Source of the DNA: Scilla litardierei
Lineage: Eukaryota > Streptophyta > Magnoliopsida > Asparagales > Asparagaceae
NCBI GenBank assembly: GCA_030789695.1
Contig: CM061139.1
Coordinates: 102,222,037 to 102,286,036 of the forward strand
Reading direction: 5' to 3'
Length of the DNA: 64,000 nt
Shown: positions 6,770 to 38,429 of the stretch, in pieces
Position numbering within the stretch: the stretch's first letter is position 1
Layout: each line of letters opens with the position of its first letter
Position numbers and translations under genes: made by a program
Notes under the pieces: generated by a model
What the model was told of the DNA's origin: nothing
The model's database searches: none
Seen by the model: the letters and a program-made list of their open reading frames with translations, nothing else

Positions 6770-9667
6770 AGAAGAATATGTGATATACACAATACTTCAA
6801 GCATGAGCAAATATAACGAATAGAATAGCATGCAAGAATATTAAATAAAAATGAATCATATATCGATTCACCCATAATCCCCAATTCTCGACGCAACCGC
6901 ACAAAGGAGTCCTCCTTTAGGGGTTTTGTGAAAATATCGGTGATTTGCTTCTGGGTTTCAACGTACACTAATATGATGTCCTTTTTAGCAACATGATCAT
7001 CTAAGAAATGGTGTCGGACATCTATGTGTTTCGAACGGGAATGGTGTACCGGGTTCTTGGAAAGACATATTGCACTTTGGTTGTCCACCATAATAGGGCA
7101 AGTATCACAGTTTATACCAAAGTCTTTAAGTGTGTGTCTCATCCAAAGAACTTGAGCACACGCAGCACCGACGGCAATGTATTCCGCCTCGGTGGTTGAA
7201 AGTGATACGGAATTTTGCTTCTTGGAAAACCAAGAGACAAGGGAATTTCCTATAAAATGGCAAGTGCCACTAGTACTTTTCCTGTCGGATTTGCATCCCG
7301 CATAATCGGCATCACTATATGAGATTAACTCATACGTGCTATATTTTGGATAAAGTAATCCAAAATCAAGTGTATAACTTAGATAACGGAAAATACGTTT
7401 TACCGCTACTAAGTGAGACTCCTTAGGTTGAGACTGATAACAAGCACATACGCATACGGCAAACATAATATCGGGCCTACTTGCGGTAAGATAAAGTAAA
7501 CTACCTATCATACCTCGATATAGACGAATGTCTACATCCTTACCGCCCGTATCCTTATCAAGATGCGTAGTCGTGCTCATTGGAGTCTTTTTCCCGGAGG
7601 CATTCTCCATTCCAAATCGCTTTAGCAACTCCACCGTGTACTTTGTTTGGTGGATGAAGATTGCATCGTCCATTTGGCGAATTTGGAGACCTAAGAAATA
7701 TTTGAGCTCACCCATGTGACTCATCTCAAATTGATCCTTCATCACATTAGAAAACTCTTCGCAAAGAGCAAAGTTAGTAGCACCGAAAATGATATCATCA
7801 ACATATATATGAACTAAAATTATATCATTATTCGAATGCTTAAAAAAAGTGTAGAATCGGCTTCTCCTATTTTAAAATTCAAATCCAAAAGAAAATTCTT
7901 TAGGCGATCATACCAAGCTCGAGGAGCTTTTCTCAAACCGTAAAGCGCTTTCTTTAGTTTAAAAACATGATTTGAAAATTTTTCATTAATAAAGCCCAGA
8001 GGTTGAGAAACGTAAACTTCCTCAACAACATCTCCATTTAAAAATGCACTTTTAACATTCATTTGAAATAATTTAAAATCCTTATGGCATGCAAAAGACA
8101 ATAATAATCTAATTGATTCTAATCTAGCTACCGGAGCGAAGGATTCTTCGAAATCAATACCTTCCTCTTGACGGTAGCCTTGAGCAACTAACTGAGCTTT
8201 GTTCTGGACGACGACTTGGTTTTCGTCGGTTTTGTTCTTGAAGATCCACTTTGTCCCTATGACAGTGTGGTTCTTCGATGGCAATGGAACAAGCTCCCAA
8301 ACTTCATTCCTCTCGAATTGAATGAGTTCCTCCTCCATGGCTAAGATCCAAGCGCTATCTTCGCATGCTTCATTAACATTCTTTGGCTCTATCGAGGAGG
8401 CAAAAGCACAATGAGCGAAGTAGTTCACTTGCGATCTCGTCTTAACACTATCATGGATATTGCCAATGACTTGCTCATGAGGATGGTCACGAACGGTATG
8501 AAGCCGTTTGGGAATACCTTGATCATTAGGAACATTCTCAATAACTTCATTAGACGGGTTAGTCTCAATAGAATCAATAGAATCAATAGAATCATTAGAG
8601 TTAGAATTACCAATTGAATCACATAAGACATCCATAGAGTCATCATCATTAGTAATTCTAGTTGGAACAAATCCTTCATTAAATGACACATAAAGCGATT
8701 CCTCGATCGTTGAGGTTCGTTTGTTGAATATCCGGTAGGCTTTGCTACGCGAAGAATATCCAACAAAAATCCCATCATCGGATCTTGGATCGAATTTGTC
8801 CAAACTACCATACGTGTTCTTAATAAAACATTTCGAACCAAAAACACGAAAATGTTTAACTTGAGGCAACCTACCAAACAATAATTCATAACAAGTTTGT
8901 TTAGTGTCGGGCCTCAAAAGTATTCTATTAAACACATAGCAAGCGGTATGTACCGCTTCCGCCCAAAATTGATGGCCAAGTTGGCTATCATCAAGCATAG
9001 TGCGAGCACATTCCACTAGCGTCCTATTCTTTCTCTCAACAACACCATTTTGAGGTGGTGCACGAGGGAATGAAAAGGTGTGTGCAATACCAACTTCATC
9101 ACAAAATGTCTCAAAAGACTCATTCTCAAATTCACCTCCATGATCACTACAAATAGTGACAATGGTGGTTCCTAAGAGATTTTGTACTTTCTTAACAACA
9201 ATTGTGAAGTTTTCAAAAGCTTCATTTTTATTACACAATGAAAATACCCAAGTAAACCTAGAAAAGTCATCAACGATGACAAGTCCATATCTAGCATTAC
9301 CTAATGAAGCAACTCTAGTTGGCCCAAATAAATCTAGATGTAATAGCTCTAGAGGCCGCTTAGAGGAAATGCTTTTCTTAGGTTTAAATGAAGATTTTGG
9401 AAGCTTGCCTCGTTGACACGAGTCACAAAAGCTTTTCTTTTGAAAGACAAGCTTAGGGAAGCCTCTAATAGAATTTAACTTGGAAAGCTTAAATAGTGTT
9501 CCAAAGTTCACATGACCAAACCGTCGATGCCATAAGTGTTGTTCACTTGTGTTGGCAATAAGACATTGTTCATGTGATCTTGGAAGATCTAGGATATATA
9601 TATATCCTTATGACGTGTGCCGGAAAACAATAATTCATTATTATCTTTTCTTAAAATATGGCACATT
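6770..9667 (-). pseudogene. pol (IN-RT-RH) of SIRE-like element S2, left part
   Basis: Reads on the minus strand as the integrase, RT and RNase H of a Copia polyprotein, collinear with intact S1 pol. The frame 9511-7820 covers the zinc-binding CDSC, the DLFGP, DHGGEF and VVERKNR integrase segments and the first half of RT. A frameshift near 7845 breaks RT just before the YVDD box, which is readable in another frame at about 7800. The frame 7745-6864 carries RNase H (SDADYAG, STTEAEY, DNQSAI). The natural stop after GIMGES is lost, so the frame runs into spacer. Similarity to S1 fades at about 6770, so S2 lacks ORF2 and its 3' LTR. The 5' side is cut at 9668 by Athila element A and resumes at 21493. 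Confidence 0.85.
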
Positions 9668-9672
9668 CCTTT
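9668..9672. repeat. Target-site duplication CCTTT (left) of element A
   Basis: CCTTT immediately precedes element A and is repeated at 21488-21492. The uninterrupted S1 sequence at the matching place contains a single CCTTT, proving the insertion point. Confidence 0.95.
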
Positions 9673-9968
9673 TGATCACTCCTTATTTTACACTTTTTTA
9701 CCGCATGTTTGCATGCCATTTAGATCGCCCAAATCATGTTTTTTCACGATATATCGACGATATTGCGATGCTTTTCACGATTTGTTGTTTTTGTCGCATT
9801 TCAGGTGATTTGGCGCGATTTGGAGTGATCTTGAGATGCTCTTACTCCATAGGGTCACCGACGACCTCCCCGTGGGGTATTTTTGCTGTTGGAGAGGAGC
9901 GGAAGAAGAACGGACGTCACAGGAGCGACGAGGAGGCCAAAACAAGCAATCTGGGCATTTTTAGTGTC

Positions 9969-10350
9969 CCACTCGGCCGAGTGGAGGAGCCACTCGGCCG
10001 ACCAGCGAGACACCGCTCGGCCGACCAGATCAGACACGATTCCTATGTGCACTCGGTCGAGCGACGGAGACCACATCGGCCGAGTGACGAGACCCCGTCC
10101 GCCCGAGTGGCGCCCAGACGAAGCCATTCAAAAATCGCCATGTTACTGTTTTTCGGCTGCCTGAGCTTCAGAAGACCCACTCGGCCGAGTGGATAATCCC
10201 GACCGCCCGAGTACCATGAAGCCATCGGCCGAGTGACGACAACTCACTCGGCCGAGCAGCCCCCGAAGTGAAGACCCCTGAAGATCGAGACTTACTGGAA
10301 ATTTACAGGGTTTTCACTCAGCCGAGTGACTTTTGTCACTCGGCCGAGTG
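9969..10350 (+). repeat. Array of ACTCGGCCGAGT palindromes, U3 of element A
   Basis: Perfect ACTCGGCCGAGT occurs at 9971, about 10180 and about 10338, with about nine imperfect versions between (for example ATCGGCCGAGT, ACTCAGCCGAGT, CGCCCGAGT). The 12-mer is its own reverse complement. The array lies 85 bp upstream of the LTR TATA-like box and is repeated in the 3' LTR (19962-20343). The same motif recurs upstream of ORF2. Confidence 0.9.
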
Positions 10351-10433
10351 CGACGCGCTGCCTGTAGCGAAAATTGCGAAAAACAGGCTGCGCAGGGGTA
10401 TTTTGGTCACAATTTTTGGACGATTTTGAGGGG

Positions 10434-10440
10434 TATTTAA
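10434..10440 (+). promoter_or_regulatory. TATA-like box of element A LTR
   Basis: TATTTAA lies inside GGGGTATTTAACCCC, downstream of the palindrome array and upstream of the hairpin region, the position expected for the LTR core promoter. Repeated in the 3' LTR at about 20427. The assignment is by position and sequence only. Confidence 0.5.
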
Positions 10441-10829
10441 CCCCTGTTTTTACCCTAGTTTTGAGGGCTTTTCTCTTAGATTTTTGTAGCCTTTTTTAGA
10501 TTAGCTTTTTAGTTTTATTCTTGAGATTGGAGAGGAGACAAAATTGGATTTTTGTTGGATTAATTGAAGAAATCCATTGGTTTGCTTCTCTCTTCTCTAA
10601 AAATTCTATTTTTATTGCATATCTCAATATTGTGATGAATTCTATTGCTTATTTCATTGATTATTTTTGTGATCTTGCTATGAATTGTGAGTAGTCGCCA
10701 CGTCTTGGGGCGTGGGGATGAACCCTACAAGCCCTATTTCATAATTGTGATGAATTGGTAGGAATTTTGCTAGAATTGCTATTAGGAATTAGATTGGGAT
10801 CAATTTACTACGGACGGCTAGGAATTCAC

Positions 10830-11137
10830 ATCGATTGGGATTTGCAAGAGATTGGATCCCAATTCGATAGGAACCCCTAGAAATCAGAATTGGGTTGGAA
10901 TCGAATTTCCGTAGTATCGGTTTGCAAGAGATTGGACCGATACTAGGGTTTCCGGTTGCAATTCCACGCCAATACCCGTTTGCAAGAGATTGGACGGGTA
11001 GGAACTATCCCAAACTAGGTCGCGGACCGAGTTTGCAAGAGATTGGGCTCGGTGCGCGATTGAACGATGATGTTGATCCTAATGCTAGCTTCCCTAGGCT
11101 AGGGTTTGCAAGAGATTGGGCCCGAACCTAGGGTAGC
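10830..11137 (+). other. Five hairpins with one invariant loop and different stems
   Basis: Five copies of the 14-nt sequence TTGCAAGAGATTGG each sit between complementary arms, and the arms differ between copies. HP1 10830-10868 pairs ATCGA/TTGGGAT with ATCCCAATTCGAT, one bulge. HP2 10913-10944 pairs AGTATCGGT with ACCGATACT, perfect 9 bp. HP3 10973-11000 pairs TACCCGT with ACGGGTA, perfect 7 bp. HP4 11021-11058 pairs 12-nt arms with one mismatch and one T-G wobble next to the loop. HP5 11088-11137 pairs 18-nt arms with three mismatches and one wobble. The array is repeated at 20823-21130. Constant loop with varying but complementary stems suggests a selected RNA structure in the R-U5 leader; function unknown. 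Confidence 0.9.
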
Positions 11138-11500
11138 TATAGGCCGGCAACAGCGCGAGAGCGTGAGCTTGGTTCTACATTCAGTTGCAACTAGTTCATC
11201 CAAAATCTTATTCTAGCAATTTTGATACCGATGAACCACTTTTACGAAATATAGTGTGTAGCAGGAATTCCCCATTCCCTAGACGTCCTTTATTTGATTT
11301 GATATTTCTATACTTTGTCTGACGATTGTGACAGGATCGCCAAAGGCAAAATTTTCTCTCTTCTTAAATAGCCAGGTTGATTGGAGCAAGCACGGTCATT
11401 CGTCCTCCCTGTGTTCGATAACCCGCTCGCTGCTACACCGTGCACTTGTGGTAAAACTTCAACCGTTCTTTAGGGTTACATCCCGGAGCGACCAAGTTTT

Positions 11501-11518
11501 TGGCGCCGTTGCCGGGGA
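11501..11518 (+). other. Primer binding site (Athila/Tat type), element A
   Basis: TGGCGCCGTTGCCGGGGA lies six bases after the LTR end. It matches the primer site usual for Athila and Tat Gypsy elements, taken to pair with the 3' end of tRNA-Asp. Confidence 0.9.
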
Positions 11519-11550
11519 GGCGATTACGTTTGATCTTACGATCCTAGCTA

Positions 11551-11582
11551 TTTCTTATTATTATTATTATTATTATTATTTC
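11551..11582 (+). repeat. (TTA)n microsatellite in the element A leader
   Basis: About ten TTA/ATT units in the short stretch between the primer site and gag. Nothing else is recognisable between 11519 and 11651. Confidence 0.85.
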
Positions 11583-11651
11583 CATTTCTTTATTTTTACC
11601 TAACCCTTCCACGGTGCTAATCATTTCTTTGAAACTCTGTTTTCCCCGTGC

Positions 11652-14423
11652 ATGTACACGAGATCTACGGCGGACCCCGAAGCTATATTGTTTGATCCCG
11701 AGATCGAACGTACCGCGCGGAGACTTAGAGCGGAAAGGAGACAAAATCCGGAAGGGAGGTTTATGACCAACCCGGAAACTGCGGACCAATTAGCGGCAAG
11801 GATGGCGAGGATAATTTCTATTCGAGATAGGCTTCGGCCTACGACCTCTTCTACGACCTCATCCATTGCCATGCCGGAGTTGGCGGCTGACAAGAACTTC
11901 GAGCTTAAGACTGGACTAGTGGTTCTGATGCAGCAGGATCCATTTTATGGGAATGCCCATGAAAATCCTCACTACCACATCCAATTATTCTTGTCGAAGT
12001 GCGCCACATTCCAAATGCCGGGGGTCTCTATCGATGCCATCAGACTGCGTCTCTTCCCCTTCACGCTAAAGGACAAGGCACTCTATTGGTTGAGGACGCA
12101 GGCTGAGGGTGTTTTCACCACTTGGGACGAGTTGGCGAGTGCATTCATTGACAAGTTCTTTCCGCCCTCCAAGACGGTGAAGATTCGGAGCGCTCTCATG
12201 TCCTTCAAGAAAGGACCCCAAGAGACGCTCTATGAAGCTTGGGAGCGTTTTAAGGATCTGCAGCATCAATGCCCGCACCATAGCATTGAAGATTGGGAGC
12301 TAGTTCATAGCTTCTACAACGGTCTCCAACCGGGGACCAAACAAATTATTGATGCCGCGGCGAATGGTGCTATCTTGTCTAAGACTCCCGAGGAAGCTAC
12401 GGCCCTAATTGAGGAGATGGCCTTAAACAATCAACAATGGGGCGATGAGCGAGGACACTCTACGTCCTCCTTGAAGCCAACTAGTATCTATGAGGCGAAG
12501 GTCGTAGCGGAGCTTACAAGCAAGTTTGATTCTCTCCACAAGGTAGTGGAGAGACTGGAGAAGTTTATCACGGAGCCCCAAGGAACCCCTTCCACCCCCG
12601 CTCCAACGAACCAAATGTGTGATTGGCAAGACCAATCTCAAGCCATGTATGCGGGAGGAGAGCAAGGAGAAGGATCCTTGGAGCAAGTACAATATGTCAC
12701 GGGGAACCAAGGATATTGGGCCAATCCGGCCACAAGAAATCATCCCGGATTCTCTTACGTAAACAATGAAGGAGCTTTGAACCCGCCACAACAACCACCT
12801 CAACAAGTTCGACCACCACCACCCCAACAACAACACTATCCGCCGAGGGGGCCTCCACAACAAAATTTCCAACCGAAGCAACAAGTTCCACCATATAGGC
12901 CGCCCGGATACAACCAAGGGTGGAGGAATCAAAATCAAAACCCTCCACAAGCTCAACAACGATCCGACTTCGAAGCTAGAGTGGAGGCGTTTATGGTCGA
13001 GCAAAATAAGGTCAATGCTACCTTGAAGGCAGGGCAAGACTCCCTTAATACCGTTGTGGCTCAAATATCGGAGCAATTGGCGTTGCTCAATCGGAACACT
13101 CAACGATTGCCGGCGCAACCCGAGCAAAACCCACGGGGCAACACCGGCCACATCAATGCCGTAGTTGCTGTTACTACTAGAGGCGGGAAGGATACCACCC
13201 CCGCCATGATTCCTACCGAGGAGCCCGTGGAGGAAAGCTTGGAGCCAATTGAGCCTGTAGTTGAAGTTGATAAGGAGAAAGAGCCACAAGAAAAGGAGAA
13301 ATCTAGAGCGGAGCAATTGATTGAGGAAAGGCGCTTCATGCCACCGGTCCCATTTCCCCAAAGGCTTGCTAGAGCGAAAATGGAGAAAAGGCTAGCAAAG
13401 TTTCTCGAGTATCTTAGAGGAGTTAGCCTCAACATTCCCTTCCTCGACGCCATCGTGGAGATCCCCACATATGCTAAATTCTTAAAGGACTTGATTTCGG
13501 GGAGAAAGAGGAAGGAGAAGATTATGCTAGCCGAGGAGGGCTCTTGGTTCACCAAGAGAGAGAAGGAGCCGGCCAAATTTAAAGACCCGGGGAGTTTTCG
13601 GATTCCTTGCACCTTGGGCGGCGTCCCTATTCAAAAGGCGTTGGTAGATCTTGGGGCTAGTGTGAGCCTCATGCCTCTCTCCATGTTCTTAAGGCTAAAC
13701 ACCGGGACGAAGTTGAAACCTACCGACATGCGGATACAATTGGCCGATGGGCGAATAACAAGGCCGGTAGGGATCGCCGAAGACATCCCGCTACAAGTCC
13801 CGGGGGGAATATGCTTGCCATGTGACTTCGTGATCATGGACGTTAAGGAGGAGGGAGATACTTCATTGATACTTGGACGCCCGTTCCTCGCCACCGCCGA
13901 AATCATTGTCGACGTGCGCGAAGGTACCCTAACTTTAAATGTCGGCAACATCGAGGTGGAGCTTCACATTCCTAAGGCTATGAAACACATGCCTTACCAC
14001 GAGGAGCTTGACTACATGGACCTCCTTGATGAGGTGATAGAAGAGGCGATCCCCCACTCGATTGGCGCTCTATTCGATGAGGATTTCGAGGAAGGCCCGG
14101 ATTTAGGCCAAGATGAGAAGATAGATGATTCCCCCGACCTCTCCGCTAAAAATGATGAAGGCGACGCTGATGTCGCAAGGATTCGAGAGCTCTGCATGCT
14201 CTCGAAATTAAAGTCTCCGAAGAAATCCCCGCCGATACGGAAATCGGCGTCACCGGTGAAGCCGTTGACCGGAGCAAACGCTAGCTTGGGAGAGCCTCCC
14301 CCCAACACTATTCGAGACAAGAGACCACCGAGGGAGAACACGCCGCCGCAACTTCCGAATCCAAGCGTTCTCCCCGGAAAGTTTGATGGGTGCATCTCAT
14401 ATGCACCGAACATCCCGCATTAA
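11652..14423 (+). CDS. gag: Athila gag-protease polyprotein (923 aa)
   Basis: An uninterrupted frame. Residues about 85-290 form the Retrotrans_gag capsid-type domain (ALYWLRTQAEG, FIDKFFPP, YEAWERFKDL, HSFYNGL are typical). Residues about 370-470 are Pro/Gln-rich; residues 530-580 are acidic. A retropepsin-like domain follows at about 645-750, with VDLGASVSLM where Athila elements carry the active-site Asp, and LILGRPFLAT later. No CCHC knuckle is present, as is usual for Athila. The acidic, lysine-rich C-terminal tail ends at YAPNIPH. In a full Athila element RT-RNase H-integrase would continue here; instead the frame stops and a conserved hairpin follows 45 bases on. The frame is intact although its element lacks pol. 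Confidence 0.93.
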   Translation: MYTRSTADPEAILFDPEIERTARRLRAERRQNPEGRFMTNPETADQLAARMARIISIRDRLRPTTSSTTSSIAMPELAADKNFELKTGLVVLMQQDPFYGNAHENPHYHIQLFLSKCATFQMPGVSIDAIRLRLFPFTLKDKALYWLRTQAEGVFTTWDELASAFIDKFFPPSKTVKIRSALMSFKKGPQETLYEAWERFKDLQHQCPHHSIEDWELVHSFYNGLQPGTKQIIDAAANGAILSKTPEEATALIEEMALNNQQWGDERGHSTSSLKPTSIYEAKVVAELTSKFDSLHKVVERLEKFITEPQGTPSTPAPTNQMCDWQDQSQAMYAGGEQGEGSLEQVQYVTGNQGYWANPATRNHPGFSYVNNEGALNPPQQPPQQVRPPPPQQQHYPPRGPPQQNFQPKQQVPPYRPPGYNQGWRNQNQNPPQAQQRSDFEARVEAFMVEQNKVNATLKAGQDSLNTVVAQISEQLALLNRNTQRLPAQPEQNPRGNTGHINAVVAVTTRGGKDTTPAMIPTEEPVEESLEPIEPVVEVDKEKEPQEKEKSRAEQLIEERRFMPPVPFPQRLARAKMEKRLAKFLEYLRGVSLNIPFLDAIVEIPTYAKFLKDLISGRKRKEKIMLAEEGSWFTKREKEPAKFKDPGSFRIPCTLGGVPIQKALVDLGASVSLMPLSMFLRLNTGTKLKPTDMRIQLADGRITRPVGIAEDIPLQVPGGICLPCDFVIMDVKEEGDTSLILGRPFLATAEIIVDVREGTLTLNVGNIEVELHIPKAMKHMPYHEELDYMDLLDEVIEEAIPHSIGALFDEDFEEGPDLGQDEKIDDSPDLSAKNDEGDADVARIRELCMLSKLKSPKKSPPIRKSASPVKPLTGANASLGEPPPNTIRDKRPPRENTPPQLPNPSVLPGKFDGCISYAPNIPH

Positions 14424-14751
14424 TTGAAAATCATAGGGGGTCGAGCTCACGACCTTAAACGAGCACTTGTCGGGAGGCAACCCGACGGTTATTGCTTTAT
14501 TTTTACTTTTTCTTTATTTTTGTTGTAGAAATTTTTAGTGTTTTGAGTCGTTCGCCCAAAAATTTTGTGATAATGGGTCCTATTTTTCTTGACAGGAGAG
14601 GAGATAGGCAAATCCATCACGAGGAGGATGAACGAGACGACGAGGAGCGCCCAAGGAAGACGCTCGATGCCTAGGAGTAAGATGAAATCGACTTGAGGAA
14701 GAAAGACGGAGTTTAGAGCCCAAACGAAGACAAACAGCAGAACATAAGGCT
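14424..14751 (+). other. Post-gag spacer with conserved hairpin
   Basis: A non-coding spacer. The hairpin GTCGGGAGGCAACCCGAC at 14469-14486 has a perfect 6-bp stem. Its context (TCGAGCTCACGACCTTAAAC before it) matches the sequence just after the integrase end in element B (55943-55995, minus strand). In element A the whole pol has thus been lost between protease and this landmark. The remainder is AT-rich and then purine-rich, without a gene. Confidence 0.75.
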
Positions 14752-15077
14752 CACTCGGCCGAGTATACAAGTCACTCAGCCGAGTGCACAAGTTCGTCCG
14801 GCCGAGCCGCTCACGAACGAGGGAAGTCTGCTGTACCCAACTCTCTGTTTATTTTCCTAAATTCAGTATAACTGCTACTCGGCCGAGTATATATTTTCAC
14901 TCGGCCGAGTAAAACGGATACGTTCCTAAGGCGAGTCTTGCCGAGTAGCTTGAGCCACTCGGCCGAATGGACTTACTCCACTCGGCCGAGGCTGGCAAAG
15001 CCACTCGGCCGAAGCGTAAGCGGGGAGGATTTTCCATTGATCCCACTCGGCCGAGTGACCTAGTCACTCGGCCGAGT
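14752..15077 (+). repeat. Second ACTCGGCCGAGT array, upstream of ORF2 of element A
   Basis: Five perfect ACTCGGCCGAGT palindromes (about 14753, 14879, 14900, 15043 and 15066) and at least five imperfect ones. They repeat the motif of the LTR U3 array in the spacer between gag-protease and ORF2. The last copy ends 10 bp before a TATA-like box. Confidence 0.92.
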
Positions 15078-15086
15078 CGTAACTTT

Positions 15087-15099
15087 TATTATATAAGGG
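15087..15099 (+). promoter_or_regulatory. Candidate internal promoter for ORF2 (TATA-like)
   Basis: TATTATATAAGGG lies 10 bp after the last palindrome. It is followed by a 550-bp stretch that looks like a plant 5' UTR: first CT- and CCG-rich, then ordinary, ending at the ORF2 ATG (15646). Array, then TATA, then leader, then ORF repeats the order seen in the LTR. This suggests that ORF2 is transcribed from its own promoter rather than only from the LTR. It is inferred from sequence order alone. Confidence 0.5.
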
Positions 15100-15645
15100 G
15101 CTGAGGGGGGGCACGTTTTTCGAAACGCAAAAAACCCAATCGCTCGCCCGACCCTTCAGCTCCTCTCGCCCGCTCGCCTCGCTCGCGCCCTCACTCGCCA
15201 GACCACCGGTCGCCGTGCCGCCGCTCGGCCCGCCACCGCCGGTCGAGCACCGCCGCGCCTCGCCCGAGTCGCCGCCGGTGGCCTCCGCTCCGACCACCTC
15301 CGGTATCGCCTGTTTCGCCCTCTTTCCCCTCTTTTTGTGTATTTTTCGAGGATCCATGTGTTTAATGACCCCCAAACCCTAATCAATTTCTATATCTATC
15401 TAATATACCCCTAATGCTCCATACGTTTTGAATATTACCCGCTGATATCGCCATTTCATGCGCAGGTTGTTTTTGGGAGCTTAGGGGAGCCCATGGGAGC
15501 TTCTACGGACTGATTTGGGCTTCGCGGAGGCGCTATCTTCGCACTCTTCCATTGCTTAGCACTCGCGGCGTGTCGAGGTATACTCTTTCCTTTCTTTTGC
15601 ACACGCCGCACTTTTTACACTTTTCGGCGCGCGCTCGGGGCCTAT

Positions 15646-17721
15646 ATGCCGCCCCGGACACGGCCGTGGTCGAGGAGAGCTTCCGCCAAGCAGAAGCGGT
15701 CGGATGACGCCGGCCCCTCCCACGAGTTGGAGGACTCTCCTCCGCCCTCTCCCACACACCCCATCCACCCAGCACAGCCTGCAGGCCCCGCACACCCCGC
15801 ACAGCCTGCAGCGCCCACACAGCCCGTACAGCCCGCACAGCCACTCCCTGCCGCTCCACAGCCACCACCTCCGGCTCCACTGGTCGGGCCGCTCGGGATT
15901 ACGTTCCGAGACGACGCACACCGCGCCGTCTTCGAGCGTATCTCCCAGCGCTCGATCGTACCCTCCAGGTTTGCACACCTTGCTGACCTAGGACGCTTGG
16001 GGGTACTAGAGGGGATGCTCACGTTGTACGACAACGTGGGCTGGCGAGATTTCTTTCAGGTGTCGGTGGACACGTTTATCCATCCGACACTTGAGGTACT
16101 TAGTTCGATCGCCCGGACCGACGAGGGATGCTCGTTTCAGTTCATGGACCGGGAGTGCCAGGTCACTCTCGATATGATGAGAGCATTTTTCTCGTGGCCC
16201 GCTGTCCCCGGAGCCAATCGTGGTTACGGTCCCACCCATATCCCCCCACCTTCCTTCGATGCCGGTGCCTTCTGGGCCCGGATTATGGGTCTTCACGCTG
16301 CCTTTGACCCTAGTAGGGCCAAAGCCTCGGCCATTGTCCATCCCTGCCTCCGTATTGCTCAGCGCCTTATGGCGACGACCTTTTTGGCCAGATATGAGCC
16401 GGGCACGATGTCTACGCCGGAGCTCTACATGCTCTACGCGATGACCCGTCCCAGAGCTATATCTAGGGATGGCGATGAGCTTGTCCCCACCGTCGTGATT
16501 GATGTCGCGGCTTGGTTTTTGGACCGCATCATTGTATCGGTGGGCGCTCGCTCACCGATATGCTGTGGCGGCTTGATCACCTTGCTTGCCCTTATGACCG
16601 GCGAGGACTTCCCTGACGACCTGCGACGAGTATCGGGCCCCACTTCTTTGTCGATCGATGTTATGGCCCGGATGAAGATGCTTCGTCCGCACGGTGAGCG
16701 TCACTGGGTCTGGTTGCACGGCCCTTACGGTGCCGATTACATGATTCTTCCGAGCCCAGCTCGGACTCAGATTTCACCAGCCCACGTCGACTGGCTCCCT
16801 GCGATGGATGTTCTCATCCCCGCTGCTTATGTGCTCGAGGCCGAGGAGGCCGAGCAGGCCCACGCTGCCCCCGCAGACCCTGTTGCACCTGCCGAGCCTG
16901 CCGCCCCTGTTGACCCCGTGGCCCCTCAGCCTATACCTGATGTTTCCGCTGCTCCTGACACCTCTGTCCCCACCTCTGTCAGTGTCGGGAGTACCTTAGC
17001 TGATCCCACCTCCACTGCTTCCGCGGCTGTCACCACCACCACTGGCCCTCTGTCTGCTGAGCCTGTTTCTTCTGCACCACCCGAGCGCCCGCCGACCATA
17101 GTTGAGTGTGGAGAGCCCTCTGTTTCCACTGTTGCTGTATTTTCCGAGAGTGTCGTGGCGTCTGTCCACACTTCTGTGCCACTGACCTCTCTGGCCGCCT
17201 CGCTGCCACTTTTGCACTCTTCTTTCGTTGCCGCTGCCTCCACTTCTCACCAGCCGGTGCCCCGGCCTCACACTGAGGCCAGGCCCACATTTGCGAGCGC
17301 AGCGCCTTTCGTTCCCTTCCCCGCTGAGCCCGTCACATACGCGACCCGAGTACGCCAGCCCCGCCCTGCACAGCCCCGCCCGGTGCGTCCCTCTGCACCA
17401 CCTCCCCCTGACACTGTACTTCAGAGCATTCGTGCTCTAGAGGGGGCGGTGAGTGGCCTCCGAGGCGACCTTAGGACCCTGTCCTCCACCGTCTCTGCGA
17501 TGGCTGACCGCTTCGACCTGCTCCCGCAGATTCACTACTGTCTTACCCAGGTCCTGGAGCGTCTCCCCCGCGTACCGCCACCCACCCAGCAGGTTCCCAC
17601 CCACACTTCCACACACACTCAGCCTGCTACCACTTCCACACCAACACCCACTCAGCGGCCTGTCCAGCCACCACCACCACTTCCGCCTCAGGACGGAGAC
17701 GGCGCAGCACCACCTTCTTAG
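15646..17721 (+). CDS. Athila ORF2 (envelope-position protein, 691 aa)
   Basis: An intact frame starting MPPRTRPWSRR with a basic N-terminus, a Pro/Ala repeat region (residues 45-85), then a globular part (about 85-390). The globular part resembles the plant Athila ORF-1 family found downstream of pol in Athila elements (ITFRDDAHRAVFERI, GWRDFF, TLDMMRAFFSWP, HVDWLPAMDVLIPA). Residues 395-691 are Pro/Ser/Thr-rich and low-complexity, ending PPQDGDGAAPPS. No convincing signal peptide or transmembrane helix is visible. The position is that of env in retroviruses, but an envelope role for the family is unproven. An intact frame in a pol-less element suggests recent descent from a functional source. 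Confidence 0.88.
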   Translation: MPPRTRPWSRRASAKQKRSDDAGPSHELEDSPPPSPTHPIHPAQPAGPAHPAQPAAPTQPVQPAQPLPAAPQPPPPAPLVGPLGITFRDDAHRAVFERISQRSIVPSRFAHLADLGRLGVLEGMLTLYDNVGWRDFFQVSVDTFIHPTLEVLSSIARTDEGCSFQFMDRECQVTLDMMRAFFSWPAVPGANRGYGPTHIPPPSFDAGAFWARIMGLHAAFDPSRAKASAIVHPCLRIAQRLMATTFLARYEPGTMSTPELYMLYAMTRPRAISRDGDELVPTVVIDVAAWFLDRIIVSVGARSPICCGGLITLLALMTGEDFPDDLRRVSGPTSLSIDVMARMKMLRPHGERHWVWLHGPYGADYMILPSPARTQISPAHVDWLPAMDVLIPAAYVLEAEEAEQAHAAPADPVAPAEPAAPVDPVAPQPIPDVSAAPDTSVPTSVSVGSTLADPTSTASAAVTTTTGPLSAEPVSSAPPERPPTIVECGEPSVSTVAVFSESVVASVHTSVPLTSLAASLPLLHSSFVAAASTSHQPVPRPHTEARPTFASAAPFVPFPAEPVTYATRVRQPRPAQPRPVRPSAPPPPDTVLQSIRALEGAVSGLRGDLRTLSSTVSAMADRFDLLPQIHYCLTQVLERLPRVPPPTQQVPTHTSTHTQPATTSTPTPTQRPVQPPPPLPPQDGDGAAPPS

Positions 17722-19665
17722 GCACCCTTGATGCCATCGATTATTCCTGCCGTTGTGCTGCCCGTTTCTGCTGGGTCCTGCTGCATTTTTGCCCCCCCTC
17801 CCCTCACTTATTTTGGGTTTCTCATTCAGATCGTATCCTTATATATCTTTTTTTGGGAGAGAGGGAGAGTTTTGGTGCCCCACCTTTATATATGTATCAC
17901 TCCTATCTGTGCATGCATCATGTCCACATCATATTTTTCGTTTCTTTTTTTTCATTTATTTTCCTTTTTTTCCCCTTCATGCATGCATCCTCACTTACCC
18001 CTCACACTTCTTGTCTCTCGGTGTGCCACACTTTGCACATTGAGGACACTGTGCCATTTAGCTTGGGGGAGTGAGTTCTCACGTTCTTTTTCGGTTTGCC
18101 ACCTTTATTTTTATTTTTTCACGTCATTCTTCGCTTTTGCACTTATTTTTCATCATTTTTCTTTTATTTTGCCATGCATCACGTTTTTCTTATTTTTCTG
18201 TGTGCCGCATTGTAAATAGTTCTATTTTCCCTTTATCTTTATTTCTTTCTTTTTCATCTCATGCTAGAGATGATTTTTCTGTGATGATGATGACGTGGAG
18301 TTAGCTTATTCTATATGCATGCTTTATTTGTCATGTCTTAGACTTTATTTTTGATATCATATGCTATGACTTGCCTTGCATCTAGAGATAGTAACCCACA
18401 CTTTTTCCACATGAAAATGGATGAAATTTTATTATTAGCTGAGTCTGAATATTCATATGTATGCTATCACAGAAAACACACCAAGATTCACGCATTGAAT
18501 GCATATATCTGGAGTACTGATTTCTTTTCCTATATCACTTCTATATGCATGAATTGTACATTTCACTTCAGGATGATTGAATGATGTTAGCTATGATAAA
18601 TCTGGATTAGTTAGCTTTTTTGTGATCGAAACTGAGTAGATTAGATTACCCTGCTGAAGTTGTTGTGCATGTCTTATAGAGTGAACCGAGTGATATATTT
18701 ATTTCTTTCTCCACAAATCTTGAACATCATTTCTCTACTTTTAAAATCATTGGTGAATCTCCCCTTAGCGATTCTATTATATGGCATTTCCCCCGCTACT
18801 AATTCCTAGCTCCAAATTTCTTATTCAAAAAAAAGAGAGAGAAAAGAGAAAATATTCTTGTATATCATTATCTCTCCTTGAGTTGGGATCGTTGTGTATA
18901 TATGCTATTGCTTCAAAAAAAAGGAGAAAAAAGAAAAGAGGAAAAATCCTCAATAAAAGATCCCATCTCACTTTCTTTCTTTCTCTTCTCTTTTCGTTGC
19001 TTTTGGAGCTTTATAAAAATGGGGATGTAAATATTTTTTTATGCCACCACGCTTATAGATAAGCTTGGGGGAGGGGATCCATTGATGTGTGAGAGAGTGA
19101 CTACTTGACGTTGCACGACAACCTAGGCTAAGTAATATTCTATACTCAATGAGATTATTTTTAGCTTTACGACATCCAGAAATCTAAGCCTAGCATTCAT
19201 ATCATGAAATCCATACTTTTCTATTCTCTCTATTCTATAGTGTGGTACTCTTATACTCCGGATAGAAAGCATTCAATTGAAAAGTGTGTGATCTGTGATT
19301 TGTATACCGCTTTAAATGATTCAGACGATGTTAATTCTAAGATTATTCCGTTTTTCACGATTATATTGTTGTTCGTGGGTTTTCTATTTCTATTTGCACT
19401 ATTATACTATGATATCAAAATAAAATTCTTTGACATGTGTTTTTCGTTCAGTGCATGCTATATGAGTAAGCGGAACCCACGTCCTGAGGAAATGATCTAG
19501 CAGCCTACCTCATCGCTTCTTTCTTTCTTCTTTATTTTTATTTCGTTTTTCATTCTTCTCCGTTTTTCATTCTTCATTCTTCGCCGTTTTCACTTTTCGA
19601 ATCCACCGGGTTCGCCTTTTACTTATCTTCCTCGAGGACGAGTAAGAGGCAAGCTTGGGGGATTT
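17722..19665 (+). other. 3' region of element A with repeated polypurine-like motifs
   Basis: Nearly 2 kb of T-rich, largely pyrimidine sequence without a credible gene. Three copies of AGCTTGGGGGA occur: 18060-18070, 19062-19072 and the true polypurine tract at 19652-19662, just before the 3' LTR. The first follows TTGAGGACACTGTG, a context known from Athila elements. Small ORFs here are compositional. Confidence 0.75.
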
Positions 19666-21487
19666 TGATCACTCCTTATTTTACACTTTTTTACCGCATG
19701 TTTGCATGCCATTTAGATCGCCCAAATCATGTTTTTTCACGATATATCGACGATATTGCGATGCTTTTCACGATTTGTTGTTTTTGTCGCATTTCAGGTG
19801 ATTTGGCGCGATTTGGAGTGATCTCGAGATGCGCTTACTCCAGAGGGTCACCGACGACCTCCCCATGGGGTATTTTTGCTGTTGGAGAGGAGCGGAAGAA
19901 GAACGGACGTCGCAGGAGCGACGAGGAGGCCAAAACAAGCAATCTGGGCATTTTTAGTGTCCCACTCGGCCGAGTGGAGGAGCCACTCGGCCGACCAGCG
20001 AGACACCGCTCGGCCGACCAGATCAGACACGATTCCTATGTGCACTCGGCCGAGCGACGGAGACCACATCGGCCGAGTGACGAGACCCCGTCCTCCCGAG
20101 TGGCGCCCAGACGAAGCCATTCAAAAATCGCCATGTTACTGTTTTTCGGCTGCCTGAGCTTTAGAAGACCCACTCGGCCGAGTGGATAATCCCGACCGCC
20201 CGAGTACCATGAAGCCATCGGCCGAGTGACGACAACTCACTCGGCCGAGCAGCCCCCGAAGTGAAGACCCCTGAAGATCGAGACTTACTGGAAATTTACA
20301 GGGTTTTCACTCGGCCGAGCGACTTTTGTCACTCGGCCGATTGCGACGCGCTGCCTGTAGCGAAAATTGCGGAAAACAGGCTGCGCAGGGGTATTTTGGT
20401 CACAGTTTTTGGACGATTTTGAGGGGTATTTAACCCCTGTTTTTACCCTAGTTTTGAGAGCTTTTCTCTTAGATTTTTGTAGCCTTTTTTAGATTAGCTT
20501 TTTAGTTTTATTCTTGAGATTGGAGAGGAGACAAAATTGGATTTTTGTTGGATTAATTGAAGAACTCCATTGGTTTGCTTCTCTCTTCTCTAAAAATTCT
20601 ATTTTTATTGCATATCTCAATATTGTGATGAATTCTATTGCTTATTTCATTGATTATTTTTGTGATCTTGCTATGAATTGTGAGTAGTCGCCACGTCTTG
20701 GGGCGTGGGGATGAACCCTACAAGCCCTATTTCATAATTGTGATGAATTGGTAGGAATTTTGCTAGAATTGCTATTAGGAATTAGATTGGGATCAATTTA
20801 CTACGGACGGCTAGGAATTCACATCGATTGGGATTTGCAAGAGATTGGATCCCAATTCGATAGGAAACCCTAGAAATCCGAATTGGGTTGGAATCGAATT
20901 TCCGTAGTATCGGTTTGCAAGAGATTGGACCGATACTAGGGTTTCCGGTTGCAATTCCGCGCCAATACCCGTTTGCAAGAGATTGGACGGGTAGGAACTA
21001 TCCCAAACTAGGTCGCGGACCGAGTTTGCAAGAGATTGGGCTCGGTGCGCGATTGAACGATGATGTTGATCCTAATGCTAGCTTCCCTAGGCTAGGGTTT
21101 GCAAGAGATTGGGCCCGAACCTAGGATAGCTATAGGCCGGCAACAGCGCGAGAGCGTGAGCTTGGTTCTACATTCAGTTGCAACTAGTTCATCCAAAATC
21201 TTATTCTAGCAATTTTGATACCGATGAACCACTTTTACGAAATATGGTGAGTAGCGGGAATTCCCCATTCCCTAGACGTCCTTTATTTGATTTGATATTT
21301 CTATACTTTGTCTGACGATTGTGACAGGATCGCCAAAGGCAAAATTTTCTCTCTTCTTAAATAGCCAGGTTGATTGGAGCAAGCACGGTCATTCGTCCTC
21401 CCTGTGTTCGATAACCCGCTCGCTGCTACACCGTGCACTTGCGGTAAAACTACAACCGTTCTTTAGGGTTACATCCCGGAGTGACCA
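19666..21487 (+). mobile_element. 3' LTR of element A
   Basis: Preceded by AAGCTTGGGGGATT (polypurine tract) and followed by the CCTTT target duplication. Same length and content as the 5' LTR, including the palindrome array (19962-20343), TATA-like box and hairpin array (20823-21130). A few substitutions separate the two LTRs, for example a G-to-A that weakens the outermost pairs of HP5. Confidence 0.95.
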
Positions 21488-21492
21488 CCTTT
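21488..21492. repeat. Target-site duplication CCTTT (right) of element A
   Basis: Repeats 9668-9672. The following CGCAAAG continues the S2 pol sequence interrupted at 9667. Confidence 0.95.
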
Positions 21493-21801
21493 CGCAAAGT
21501 TAACTTTGTAACCTTTGTCACAAAGTTGACTTATTGAAATGAGATTGTGGTTTAATCCTTTAATAAGGTAAACATCACATATAATGGGTTTAGAAGGATT
21601 ACCCACTTTACCAACACCTATGATGGTTCCGCTCTCGTTGCCTCCAAATACGACGCGGTTTCCATTTGCAATGGGAACCACTCCGGAGAGCAATTGAGCG
21701 TCACCCGTCATGTGTTTTGAACACCCGCTATCGAGTATCAAATTCCCCTTGGAGATAAATTTAAATTTGTTACTCCTTTTCTTTTTCTTTTCCTTGAGTA
21801 C
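21493..21801 (-). pseudogene. Protease and start of pol of S2, right part
   Basis: On the minus strand this gives a lysine-rich linker, then [14 protein letters not shown], the Copia protease active-site region (Asp-Ser-Gly), and then [11 protein letters not shown]1 has Trp where S2 has Leu before ILDSG. The frame is interrupted at 21492 by element A and its remainder is at 6770-9667. It begins directly after the candidate mini-intron (21802-21860). Confidence 0.85.
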
Positions 21802-21854
21802 CTAAAGATAGAAAATTTCATATCATGGTACCCAAGGTCATTGGGTCTAAAAGA

Positions 21855-24101
21855 TTAGACCTTTGGAAGCCAAGTCCAAATGGACTTAGACTTCCCCACA
21901 TAATTTCTACTATGCACAACATCCAAAAAATAAGCATTCATGTAAACTTGTTTTTCATCCATGCTTGTGTCCTTTGGGCTCCAAATAGTGAAAATCTTGG
22001 AAGCCCGCATCCTATTGGGTGCATGCATGCGTTGTTGGTTTCTACGTGATGCATGTCGTGGATAGGCATAAGGAACATGATGGAATGGTGCATGTGGATA
22101 GTTATTCATACGATGGTGTGGGTGAACATATGCATGTGGAGGAACACGTTCGTGAGGGTGTCTCACATGGTGTGCACGTGCCCGTGAACGTGTAGCATAG
22201 AAATCATCATATGTGTGAGCCGGTGGAGTAGGACGTGTGTTCCTACGTGGCATAGTATTGGTGTACATATAAGAATGCCCCTTCTTTGGAGGTCCACCCA
22301 AAGTGGGTTTCTTTCCGAAAGAGGGTGTGGACGAGGTGGAAGCACCATTGGTAGAAGAACTACCAATAGAGTGTTTGCTACCACTCGTTAAGTCACCGGA
22401 AGTTGGCCTAACAAAAGTAGTGGCCGATTTGGATGAACTTCCCATCGTATACCCCAAATCAATGTGGTGATTGGCCGGAAGTAAGTCACTTAGGATTTTA
22501 TCCAAATGGTCCTTACCCTTATTAAATTTATTAATTCGGCCTAATGTGTTCTCATATTTCTCGGTGAGAGAACGCATAGAAGTATCCAAATTGGATACTT
22601 GCGATGTGAGCACATAAATACGAGATTTAAGATTCTCATTCTCAATACTCAAAGTCGATTTTTGATAAGTCAAATCCGCTATCTTGTGTTCCTCCGGATC
22701 TTCAATGCTAACATGTTCAAGTTGAGTCTTGAGATTAACAATGTCATTCTTCAACCCTTCAACAACGGTGTCGTTGTTGGTGATGATAGTTTTAGGCGAG
22801 GTTTGAATGCTAGCTAAGTCATCTTTTACTTTAGTATACATATTTACTAATTTAGTATACTTAGACCATAATTGAGAATTAGCATTCCTAAGGTCATCCA
22901 CAGTTACCTCATCGCCTTTGTTGTCGCTATCATCGGAAGAGGAAGATCCTTGATCATGCTCCTCTCTTGCCATGAAGCACATGTGTGCTTGCTCCACTTG
23001 TTCATCATCCGACTCTCCGCTTGAGGAATCCTCGGAGTCGGTGAATGTTGCCCCGACAAGACCCTTTTTGTTCCCTTTCTTGTACTTCTTGGACTTGTCG
23101 TACTTTGGCGCCTTCCACTTCTCCTTTTTCTTGTTTAGAGGACACTCCGCTTTCATGTGTCCTGGCTTGTTGCATTTAAAGCACAAAGAAGAAGAAGAGT
23201 TAGATTAATTGAACTTCGACTTGTTTTTGAAGTGACCTTTCCGGAAGAACCGGTTGAACTTCTTGGCCATGAGTGCCATGGACTCCAAGTCCAACTCGTT
23301 TTCCGAGTTCTCATCATCGGTTGATGTGGAAGTAGATAGAGCGGCCTTGAAAGTAATAGCTTTCTTCTTTGGCTCTTCTTGTTGTAGGTAAGACTTCATC
23401 TTTTCCTGCAACTTCAACTTGCTATCTTTGCGTACCTCATAAGACATCAAGGTACCCATTAGTTGAACAACGGTATATTTGTTCATATCATTACCTTCCT
23501 CGATGGCGAAGGTACACTTTTCCCAACTCGAAGGAAGTCCTTCGATAAGCTTCGAACATTTCTCCTTTTGGGTGTAGGATTTGCCGAGAGCCTCTAACTC
23601 GTTTATGATGTCGACGAAGCGAGCATAATACTCCTTCATCTTCTCACCCTGTAGCATATGAAACATTTCGTAATCTTTATTAACTACAACGAGTTTAGAG
23701 TCTCTTACCCTACTCGTCCTTTCATGTAATATGAGGAGGGAGTTCCATATTTGATATGCACTCTTACATGTGCATATCTTGTTGAAATCCTCGGGCTCCA
23801 AAGCACATTGCAAGGCGTTCATTGCCTTGGCATTGCTCACCTCCGCGGCAACCTCCGCGGGAGTCCATTTCTCGAAATCTTCTTCGGTGGGCTCGACGTA
23901 TTCCTTCATCGTGGTCCTCCATAGTGAAGCACTCCGGAGGAAAGTCTCCATCCGGCATTTACAGTACCCGTAGTTGGTACCGTTGAAGAATGGAGGCCTC
24001 GTTGAGGAATGTCCTTCCATTACCGAAGACGCTCCTTCACGGTTCTTGAAGGTGCTATAGTCGGAAGGTGGACGAACGGTCTTGTTGTCGTTGGCAGACA
24101 T
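21855..24101 (-). pseudogene. gag: gag of SIRE-like element S2
   Basis: Starts MSANDNKTVRPPSDY 13 bases after the primer site. Residues about 50-220 form the UBN2-type gag domain of plant Copia elements (RPPFFNGTNYGY, AYQIWNSL, ALGKSYTQKEKCSKLIEGLP). One in-frame TAA (23205-23207) separates this from the zinc knuckle CFKCNKPGHMKAECP and the long acidic and Ser-rich C-terminal half. The frame ends WLPKV-stop at 21855, exactly as in S1. The canonical Trp in YGYWKC is Cys here. Apart from the one stop the frame is open, so the copy is only moderately old. Confidence 0.85.
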
Positions 24102-24113
24102 AGCTATAGACTT

Positions 24114-24126
24114 GGCTCTGATACCA
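24114..24126 (-). other. Primer binding site of S2 (tRNA-Met type)
   Basis: The minus strand reads TGGTATCAGAGCC two bases after the LTR end, as in S1 at 36658-36670. Confidence 0.85.
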
Positions 24127-24128
24127 AA

Positions 24129-25962: not shown

Positions 25963-26708
25963 TGTAATGCCCTACAAGCTACTGCACAAGTACTAGAGGG
26001 GGGGTGAATAGTACTTTAAAATAATAAGGAGTATAATTCCAAATTAAATTGCAAACAACTAACAAATCAATTTGCGGAAGCTTAAATTGAATGACAACAA
26101 ACTTAACAATGCAAACAAATGATGTTAATGGGTTCGGATCCACCCAAGTCTCCCCGACTTGTTCCCGGTGATCCTACGTCCCAACCACCCGGATCCCCTC
26201 CGGATACTTGAGTTAGAAACCCAAACTCAAGATTTCCACTATGAATATCTTGTGAAAAACCTTCACAAGATCAAATCATACAACAACGGCAATAGTGAAT
26301 CCCACAACCCGGGATCACAACCTTCTCTCACAACCGAGAGAATCAACAAGCAATATAAATGAGTTATATTGAAATAAACAAACTTACCACAAAATCCTAT
26401 ACCTTGAGTTTTTCTTACCCAATAGGTGAAATGAAGGATTTGAGGAAGATGAAGTCACCAAGACCTAGCACCAAGGAAATGACCAGCAATAGGTGCCTAG
26501 GAATGATTTGGAGACTAGGATCAAGCAATAGCTTGAAGAGCTCACCAAGAACAAACTTCGCTCTAGATGGATTCTAGATCTAGAAATGAGAGAGAATGGG
26601 TTTCTTGTGAGGAAGAGAGATTTTGATTTGAGTGAGAATGGCTATCTCTTTTGATCTCAATGAATCTCTGAATGGAAGCTCTAACCTAGATAGAAATGAC
26701 CTAGGTTC

Positions 26709-26720
26709 GTATTTATAGGG
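26709..26720 (-). promoter_or_regulatory. TATA box of the S1 3' LTR
   Basis: The minus strand reads CCCTATAAATAC, about 50 bp downstream of the palindromic array. Same box in the 5' LTR at 37422-37433 and in S2 at 24861-24871. Confidence 0.75.
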
Positions 26721-26771
26721 TCCCATAAAAACAACTTAGGTCATTCTCCAACGGATAGAAATCTGGGAGAA

Positions 26772-36645: not shown

Positions 36646-36657
36646 AGCTAAGTATCT

Positions 36658-36670
36658 GGCTCTGATACCA
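36658..36670 (-). other. Primer binding site of S1 (tRNA-Met type)
   Basis: The minus strand reads TGGTATCAGAGCC two bases after the 5' LTR end and 12 bases before the gag ATG. Confidence 0.88.
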
Positions 36671-36672
36671 AA

Positions 36673-38424: not shown

Positions 38425-38429
38425 TGTTC

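What the first reader, a model, noticed from the sequence alone, without database searches (positions are those of the whole stretch)
10830..11137. Five hairpins with an identical 14-nt loop but unrelated, complementary stems in the LTR of element A
TTGCAAGAGATTGG occurs five times within 308 bp, and each time the flanks are complementary to each other but not to the flanks of the other copies (GTATCGGT/ACCGATAC, TACCCGT/ACGGGTA, ACCGAG/CTCGGT and so on). Simple tandem duplication would copy stems along with loops. Keeping pairing while stems diverge is the signature of selection on structure. The array is in the presumed R-U5, so it would be in the 5' leader of genomic RNA and again near its 3' end. 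It could serve packaging, dimerisation, translation or binding of a loop-specific protein. I know of no description of it.
Basis: seen in the sequence. Interest (0 to 1): 0.92.

Follow-up and report, generated by a model that had tools for sequence, protein, structure and literature searches.

The report
Five matching RNA hairpins in Athila LTR
A very abundant plant jumping gene carries five small RNA hairpins with the same tip but different stems, kept paired by natural selection in its RNA, probably as docking sites for a protein such as the one that packs that RNA.

Summary
TTGCAAGAGATTGG occurs five times at 10842-11119 and again in the 3' LTR; each copy sits between flanks that pair with each other and not with those of other copies. 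The '14-nt loop' is itself folded: U.G pair, bulged UG, CAA/UUG stem, GAGA (GNRA) tetraloop.

LTR copies from the same genome (58, then 74 distinct rows, the window's two included) support selection on structure. Paired columns change together 19 times against 4.2 in shuffled pairings; 17 of 19 swap one standard pair for another, also inside the 'loop' (CAA/UUG to CAC/GUG). Single changes mostly keep pairs on internal branches (54:25), not on terminal ones (82:104). Changes giving G-U on the sense strand outnumber the mirror changes 39:10, so sense RNA is the selected molecule.

The array lies between a conserved TATA box and the primer-binding site. One element read, without recognisable gag or pol, keeps it. 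Of 68 LTRs picked by primer-binding site, 39 lack it.

Best reading: a multivalent docking site in genomic RNA, most likely for Gag (packaging). Structure and selection are shown; function is inferred. Ten paper searches found no description.

The parts
9673..11494 (+). 5' LTR of element A (TGATC...GACCA); 3' LTR at 19666-21487
   Evidence: 98.6% identical pair of 1,825-bp stretches; 5-bp target duplication CCTTT at 9668-9672 and 21488-21492
10434..10440 (+). TATA box candidate TATTTAA; transcription start inferred some 30 nt downstream
   Evidence: TATTTAA or TATATAA in 24 of 25 aligned LTRs; start not mapped
10817..10880 (+). Hairpin 1 (long, with two small internal loops); motif 10842-10855
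   Evidence: fold; 97.0% of cells paired in 35 rows, 5 pairs with changes on both sides
10912..10945 (+). Hairpin 2; motif 10922-10935
   Evidence: fold; C-G to U-A in 16 of 35 rows at one stem pair; but two mid-stem pairs are unpaired in 16 and 11 of 35 rows
10973..11000 (+). Hairpin 3; motif 10980-10993
   Evidence: fold; two adjacent C-G pairs are U-A in 14 of 35 rows, 98.4% of cells paired
11019..11060 (+). Hairpin 4; motif 11033-11046
   Evidence: fold; 5 pairs with two-sided change; inner pair C-G in 25 and A-U in 8 of 35 rows
11086..11139 (+). Hairpin 5; motif 11106-11119
   Evidence: fold; inner pair A-U in 27 and C-G in 7 of 35 rows, exchanged more than once on the tree
11140..11177 (+). 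Hairpin 6: GAGA loop on a GCGC/GCGU stem, without the 14-nt motif
   Evidence: fold; 90.5 and 95.7% of cells paired but no two-sided change, so support is weaker
11501..11518 (+). Primer-binding site TGGCGCCGTTGCCGGGGA (tRNA-Asp type, label recalled)
   Evidence: sequence; 28,303 exact copies in the genome
11652..14423 (+). gag-protease open reading frame
   Evidence: PF03732 and PF13650; no match to one CCHC zinc-knuckle pattern
15646..17721 (+). ATHILA ORF-1 family open reading frame
   Evidence: PF03078, E 6e-11
20835..21112 (+). The same five motifs in the 3' LTR

Best explanation
The array is a cis-acting element of the sense (genomic) RNA of an Athila-type Ty3 retrotransposon family. Five presentation stems of arbitrary sequence each display one recognition unit: U.G pair, bulged UG, CA(A/C)-GAGA-(U/G)UG. 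A protein, most likely the family's own Gag, binds the units side by side, and this multivalent binding marks the RNA for packaging into virus-like particles and reverse transcription. Shown here: the fold by prediction plus covariation, selection for pairing in the sense strand, near-invariance of the recognition unit, location between TATA box and PBS, and retention in one element without recognisable gag or pol. Inferred: that a protein reads it, that the protein is Gag, and that packaging is the outcome.
For: Identical unit on unrelated stems in five places. Coordinated substitutions: 18 against null mean 3.8, maximum 11 in 2,000 shuffles (58 rows); 19 against 4.2, maximum 13 in 5,000 (74 rows); standard pair to standard pair in 14 of 18 and 17 of 19. 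Genome-wide, double changes at the innermost 'loop' pair number 35,241 against 53 for the reversed pattern, and all of the first 100 listed still pair (96 C-G, 4 U-G). Keep:break on internal branches 54:25, on terminal branches 82:104. G-U-making changes outnumber A-C-making ones 39:10 on internal branches, with 88:99 for the same classes in unpaired columns (Fisher p 4e-5): sense RNA rather than DNA or antisense. The unit is 97.3% conserved against 88.1% for stems and 84.5% for the rest; GAGA in 277 of 290 hairpins, the three 5' U (one before the motif and its first two) in 290 of 290. In an otherwise exact motif GAGA makes up 167,774 of 170,673 GNRA loops, which suggests reading of the bases; caution: exact motifs favour young copies. 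Conservation along the LTR is 0.83-0.93 in the array and 0.87-0.91 next to the PBS (25 rows). An element with LTRs spaced 5.8 kb apart and no Pfam-detectable gag or pol keeps array and PBS, as expected of a trans-packaged RNA. Precedents: tetraloop hairpins in packaging of alpha- and gammaretroviruses (passages of PMC516450); conserved dimerisation and packaging signals in gag-less BARE2, packaged by BARE1 (passages of PMC3735527).
Against: No transcript, particle or binding data. The gag-protease frame of element A has no match to a CCHC zinc-knuckle pattern, so the usual retroviral reader of such loops is absent or replaced by a Q/P-rich stretch with basic residues. The array may lie in R, hence also at the 3' end of the RNA and in any spliced RNA that keeps the leader, which a signal for full-length RNA alone would avoid. 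Of 68 PBS-picked places 39 lack the array, so it is not a general need of elements with this PBS. The two-sided changes come from some 18 events on the tree, some shared by large subfamilies; exchange between copies could inflate repeats. In one search the number of further pair types (75) does not exceed shuffles (73.5; 147 of 500 as high) and the number of pairs with two-sided change only modestly (17 against 13.1; 16 of 500). Two mid-stem pairs of hairpin 2 and some outer pairs of hairpin 5 are poorly kept. G-U-making changes are also in some excess on terminal branches (69:51 against 78:113, p 0.005). The short element has weak translated similarity to element A, one 27-residue stretch of it in the ATHILA frame, so its reading as gag-less rests on the lack of Pfam matches. 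It was the only such interior read.
Confidence: 0.5

Rival explanations
1. A host or element-encoded protein binds the array to steer nuclear export, stability or 3'-end processing of the RNA, in the manner of the Rex or Rev response elements of complex retroviruses.
For: Placement between TATA box and, in 7 of 25 LTRs, an AATAAA downstream of the array would put it at both ends of the transcript; multivalent identical sites suit such proteins; element A has an extra reading frame (PF03078). The Rex/Rev comparison is recalled.
Against: No candidate RNA-binding protein was identified; nothing here separates it from packaging.
Confidence: 0.2
2. The hairpins act in translation of the long leader (ribosome shunt or internal entry) ahead of gag.
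For: The inferred leader from the TATA box to the gag ATG is about 1.2 kb with 8 upstream ATGs, poorly suited to plain scanning; a review of viral internal entry sites names GNRA tetraloops 11 times (search listing only, PMC5759354).
Against: The short element without recognisable gag also keeps the array; five equal, independently stemmed units resemble binding sites more than a single folded entry domain.
Confidence: 0.12
3. The palindrome UUGCAA in the loop serves RNA dimerisation by kissing contacts.
For: UUGCAA is a six-base palindrome; kissing loops are proposed to start dimerisation of Ty1 RNA (title and start of abstract of PMC5454406).
Against: In hairpins 4 and 5 of many copies it becomes UUGCAC, which is not self-complementary, and the partner side changes to keep the inner stem: selection keeps the inner pairing, not the palindrome.
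Confidence: 0.05
4. DNA-level inverted repeats (cruciforms, DNA-binding sites) or plain duplication without function.
For: Inverted repeats exist at DNA level by construction; on terminal branches pairs are lost freely (82 kept, 104 broken).
Against: Stems are unrelated between the five copies; tolerated changes on internal branches are strand-asymmetric, 39 to 10, which DNA pairing does not predict.
Confidence: 0.05

Closest known systems
Retroviral packaging region (Psi) with GACG tetraloop hairpins of alpha- and gammaretroviruses (passages of PMC516450)
   Same: tetraloop-capped hairpins in the leader region of an LTR element's RNA
   Different: here GAGA, not GACG; five copies with a fixed bulged unit; inside the LTR upstream of the PBS; no packaging shown; no zinc-knuckle match in Gag
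Multiple packaging signals of RNA viruses: human parechovirus 1 (abstract of PMC5431903), hepatitis B virus RGAG loops (start of abstract of PMC7612645)
   Same: many RNA sites make the same sequence-specific contact with a coat or core protein; for hepatitis B virus the abstract puts the motif in loops of stem-loops (free stems: recalled)
   Different: there spread over the genome; here one compact array of near-identical 14-nt units in a noncoding LTR
BARE and Ty1 dimerisation and packaging signals (passages of PMC3735527; start of abstract of PMC5454406)
   Same: cis-acting RNA signals of LTR retrotransposons; BARE2 without Gag keeps them
   Different: kissing-loop logic is not supported here; no sequence comparison was made
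CsrB/RsmZ-type sponge RNAs (recalled)
   Same: many hairpins with one loop motif and differing stems, bound multivalently
   Different: bacterial, trans-acting, GGA loops; no relation implied

Membership tests
Athila lineage of Ty3-type LTR retrotransposons | ATHILA ORF-1 family protein (PF03078) and Ty3-type gag | tested here: met
   PF03078 E 6e-11; PF03732 E 2.8e-19
Athila lineage of Ty3-type LTR retrotransposons | placement by reverse transcriptase | tested here: inconclusive
   no pol domain in the two long frames of element A or in 10 shorter frames, so this copy offers nothing to place; hence 'Athila-type', non-autonomous
Conserved RNA secondary structure | compensatory base-pair changes beyond chance | tested here: met
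   19 co-substitutions against 4.2, 0 of 5,000 shuffles; one search is mixed: cells and covariation score exceed all 500 shuffles, pair types do not
Conserved RNA secondary structure | strand-specific tolerance of G-U | tested here: met
   39 to 10 on internal branches against 88 to 99 background
GNRA tetraloop hairpin | GNRA loop closed by a paired stem | tested here: met
   GAGA in 277 of 290 hairpins, inner stem with C-G/A-U exchange; structure predicted, not probed
Retroelement packaging signal (Psi) | located in the 5' leader of genomic RNA | tested here: inconclusive
   between conserved TATA box and PBS; transcript ends not mapped
Retroelement packaging signal (Psi) | bound by Gag and needed for packaging | not testable with these tools
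   needs binding and particle assays
Kissing-loop dimerisation signal | conserved self-complementary loop | tested here: not met
   palindrome UUGCAA replaced by UUGCAC in hairpins 4 and 5 of many copies
Any Rfam 15 family | covariance model match | tested here: not met
   0 matches up to E 1 in 9670-11700

The most novel reading that the evidence does not exclude
A plant LTR retrotransposon family uses a multivalent RNA response element, five identical bulged GAGA units on freely exchangeable stems, present at both ends of its RNA and read by an element-encoded protein that is not a zinc-knuckle Gag; gag-less relatives carry the same tag as a passport to exploit the machinery of others. This would be a plant counterpart of Rex/Rev-type or Psi-type recognition built on a new RNA unit.
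Probability: 0.25. Interest if true: 0.85.

Novelty: new variant of a known kind. Interest (0 to 1): 0.7.

Why it matters
Packaging and recognition signals of plant LTR retrotransposons are little known; the BARE paper says fairly little is known of packaged RNA in other LTR retrotransposons (passage of PMC3735527). This array gives a defined, testable RNA unit with 167,774 exact copies in one genome, a strict design (fixed unit, free stem), and a natural experiment in an element that keeps the tag without recognisable gag. It could make the question of how non-autonomous elements are selected for packaging directly testable.

Tried and rejected
Kissing-loop dimerisation: rejected as main reading because the palindrome is lost where the inner pair changes. 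DNA cruciform or chance: rejected by the strand test and tree-based tests. Chance flanking complementarity: rejected by the 120-assignment test. Known RNA family: none up to E 1. Search for two motifs 36-66 nt apart in viral and prokaryote collections: 0 matches each; no related plant genome is held, so the between-species test could not be done, and R-scape was not available. Scan of the 36 PBS-picked LTRs without the array for hairpins sharing a loop of 6-16 nt: no loop occurs more than twice (two-copy cases in 13 of 36, mostly the palindrome CGATCG). GAGA tips with three or more pairs occur in other lineages too: in all 6 LTRs of cluster c3 and, nearer the PBS, in 12 of 19 of cluster c1, besides scattered ones; no chance control was run. 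Sliding-window folding of 18 picked LTRs, 14 of them from other lineages, was noisy (30 shuffles a window) and shows structured stretches elsewhere too, so fold energy alone does not single the array out. A genome-wide count of double changes at the two other inner pairs was not obtained.

Rows dropped and bias: 32 LTR places were picked by an exact motif match, 12 more by the variant pattern, and are biased towards the motif; of 8 blind 10-kb stretches 1 held the array. Identical rows were merged (59 to 58; 75 to 74). Of the 20 loci, 3 gave no BLAST match of 300 letters and were left out. Trees are FastTree, midpoint-rooted, with Fitch parsimony; recombination between copies was ignored.

Full report
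What is there. Element A is an LTR retrotransposon, 9673-21487, with LTRs of about 1.82 kb that are 98.6% identical and a 5-bp target duplication CCTTT. It has a gag-protease frame (PF03732, PF13650) and an ATHILA ORF-1 frame (PF03078); no polymerase or integrase domain was found in these frames or in 10 shorter ones tested between and behind them, so this copy looks non-autonomous. It sits inside a copia-type element. Each LTR holds five exact copies of TTGCAAGAGATTGG.

Is it more than chance. Left and right flanks pair with runs of 9, 10, 7, 7 and 4, and the true assignment of left to right flanks is the best of all 120 (36 of 40 pairs). Multiplying the window-wide frequencies of such runs gives roughly 2e-13 for the five together (my arithmetic, treating them as independent). 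The region folds better than all 100 dinucleotide shuffles, z -5.6.

The unit. The predicted fold shows that the 14 nt are not an open loop: after a U-A or U.G pair comes a U.G pair, a two-base bulge UG on the 5' side, three pairs CAA/UUG, and a GAGA tetraloop of the GNRA type. The stem next to the unit has 4 to 12 pairs and is prolonged in hairpins 1, 4 and 5 beyond small internal loops. A sixth GAGA hairpin of different make-up follows.

Copies in the genome. The genome (3.68 Gb, unnamed) has 167,774 exact motif copies on both strands (84,400 + 83,374) against 5 for the reversed pattern. Thirty-three further LTRs, 32 picked by the motif and one from 8 blind 10-kb stretches, are 75 to 96% identical to the window over 384-402 aligned columns and fall into subfamilies. 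Sampling by the PBS, not by the motif, gave 68 places, of which 29 have the array and 39 do not.

Selection on structure. On the 35-row alignment, 95.5% of cells form standard pairs in a 100-pair structure; there are 116 cells with two-sided change against 42.4 in shuffles, and sliding the partners by 1 to 3 columns drops pairing to 18-46%. The number of further pair types is not above shuffles (75 against 73.5, 147 of 500 as high), and the number of pairs with two-sided change only modestly (17 against 13.1, 16 of 500). Such shuffles ignore relatedness, so I counted events on a tree with Fitch parsimony over 87 pairs of hairpins 1-5: 18 co-substitutions against 3.8 expected with 58 rows, 19 against 4.2 with 74 rows, 0 of 5,000 shuffled pairings reaching it, 17 of 19 from standard pair to standard pair. 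Examples: hairpin 3, CC/GG to UU/AA; hairpin 4, C-G to U-A; and inside the 'loop' of hairpins 4 and 5, exchange of A-U and C-G. Genome-wide, changes on both sides of that inner pair occur 35,241 times against 53 for the reversed pattern, and all of the first 100 listed keep a pair; these descend from few events, so the count is not one of independent changes.

Time and strand. On internal branches single changes keep the pair 54 times and break it 25 times; on terminal branches, where most time after insertion should fall, 82 and 104. With 58 rows the kept share was 70% (43 of 61) against 55% expected on internal branches, and 47% (70 of 148) against 47% on terminal ones. Changes that make G-U on the sense strand outnumber those that make A-C (G-U on the other strand) 39 to 10 on internal branches; in unpaired columns the same classes are 88 to 99 (Fisher p 4e-5). 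On terminal branches they are 69 to 51, background 78 to 113 (p 0.005), so some of the effect is also there. I read this as selection acting on the sense RNA of replicating lineages.

What is kept. Motif columns are 97.3% conserved, stems 88.1%, the rest 84.5% (58 rows; 32 of the fetched places were picked by the motif, which favours it). The three 5' U are kept in 290 of 290 hairpins and GAGA in 277 of 290. In an otherwise exact motif, all GNRA loops together number 170,673, of which 167,774 are GAGA. A loop wanted only for stability could become GAAA or GCGA in some lineage; that this was not seen suggests reading of the bases, with the caution that exact motifs favour young copies.

Where it lies. 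A TATA box (TATTTAA or TATATAA) is found at the same place in 24 of 25 aligned LTRs, some 390 bp before the array; 7 of 25 have AATAAA between array and PBS, the window copy has none. The array is thus inferred to be in the leader, and in those seven probably in R, hence at both ends of the RNA. Conservation along the LTR is 0.83-0.93 in the array and 0.87-0.91 next to the PBS, 0.54-0.83 from 9673 to 10772, and falls to 0.65 between array and PBS (50-bp steps).

Who carries it. Sister LTRs lie about 10 kb apart (for example L019/L020, L030/L031) or 5.1-5.9 kb apart (L011/L012, L013/L014, L034/L035, L036/L037; tree, places). One interior of the short class was read (L129): at DNA level it shares with element A the PBS neighbourhood, the LTR start and two stretches of about 40 bp; translated comparison adds weak stretches, one of 27 residues in the ATHILA frame. 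Its five + strand frames of 90 aa or more match no Pfam family up to E 0.1. An element without recognisable gag or pol that keeps array and PBS fits a cis-acting signal used in trans. Among the LTRs without the array, all 6 of cluster c3 have one or two hairpins with a CCAC-GAGA-GUGG-like tip, close to the CAC-GAGA-GUG form seen here, and 12 of 19 of cluster c1 have a short GAGA-tipped stem nearer the PBS. The unit may therefore be older than the array; no chance control was run on this.

Mechanism. The design, one fixed unit on exchangeable stems and in five copies, is that of multivalent protein docking. Packaging by Gag is the likeliest use (0.5), by analogy with tetraloop hairpins of alpha- and gammaretroviruses (passages of PMC516450), multiple packaging signals of parechovirus (abstract of PMC5431903) and hepatitis B virus (start of abstract of PMC7612645), and gag-less BARE2 (passages of PMC3735527). 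Against it stand the lack of a zinc-knuckle match in this Gag and the probable presence in R. Export or stability control (0.2) and translation (0.12) remain open.

In print. Apart from the passages and abstracts named, papers were seen as listings only; PMC12477314 was searched for Athila and hairpin and its passages had nothing on it. The library lacks most subscription journals.

Noticed in passing
window 10180-10350: Five near-copies of the palindrome CACTCGGCCGAGTG upstream of the TATA box (sequence printed), perhaps a repeated DNA-binding site of U3; at about that place L071 and L079 fold strongly (z -7.6 and -6.6), L088 and L081 do not (-0.4, -2.1).
   Followed up: no
window 14424-15645: Only 1.2 kb lie between the gag-protease frame and the ATHILA frame and no pol domain was found; the element looks non-autonomous although both other frames are long and open.
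   Followed up: partly
L129 (1-4001): Interior of a short array-bearing element: two adjacent stretches of one frame (274 and 260 aa, split by a stop) with tandem DQSAQMGEYYY-like repeats and no Pfam match.
   Followed up: partly
window 11652-14423: Gag-protease frame without a match to a CCHC zinc-knuckle pattern; a Q/P-rich stretch with basic residues lies behind the Gag domain.
   Followed up: partly
L056, L065, L074, L080, L095, L097: LTR cluster c3 has another kept long hairpin (GTGGATC...CACGTGACCATG...CTCGTGCC...GATCCAC in most rows) upstream of its GAGA hairpin.
   Followed up: no
L061 (about -1185 from the PBS), L075 (about -1070): Very stable predicted hairpins in LTRs of two other clusters with the same PBS (z -16 and -8).
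   Followed up: no
window 6790-9672 and 21488-24715: Copia-type element split by element A; a relative lies at 25963-38425 with terminal repeats 98.7% identical and internally repeated.
   Followed up: no
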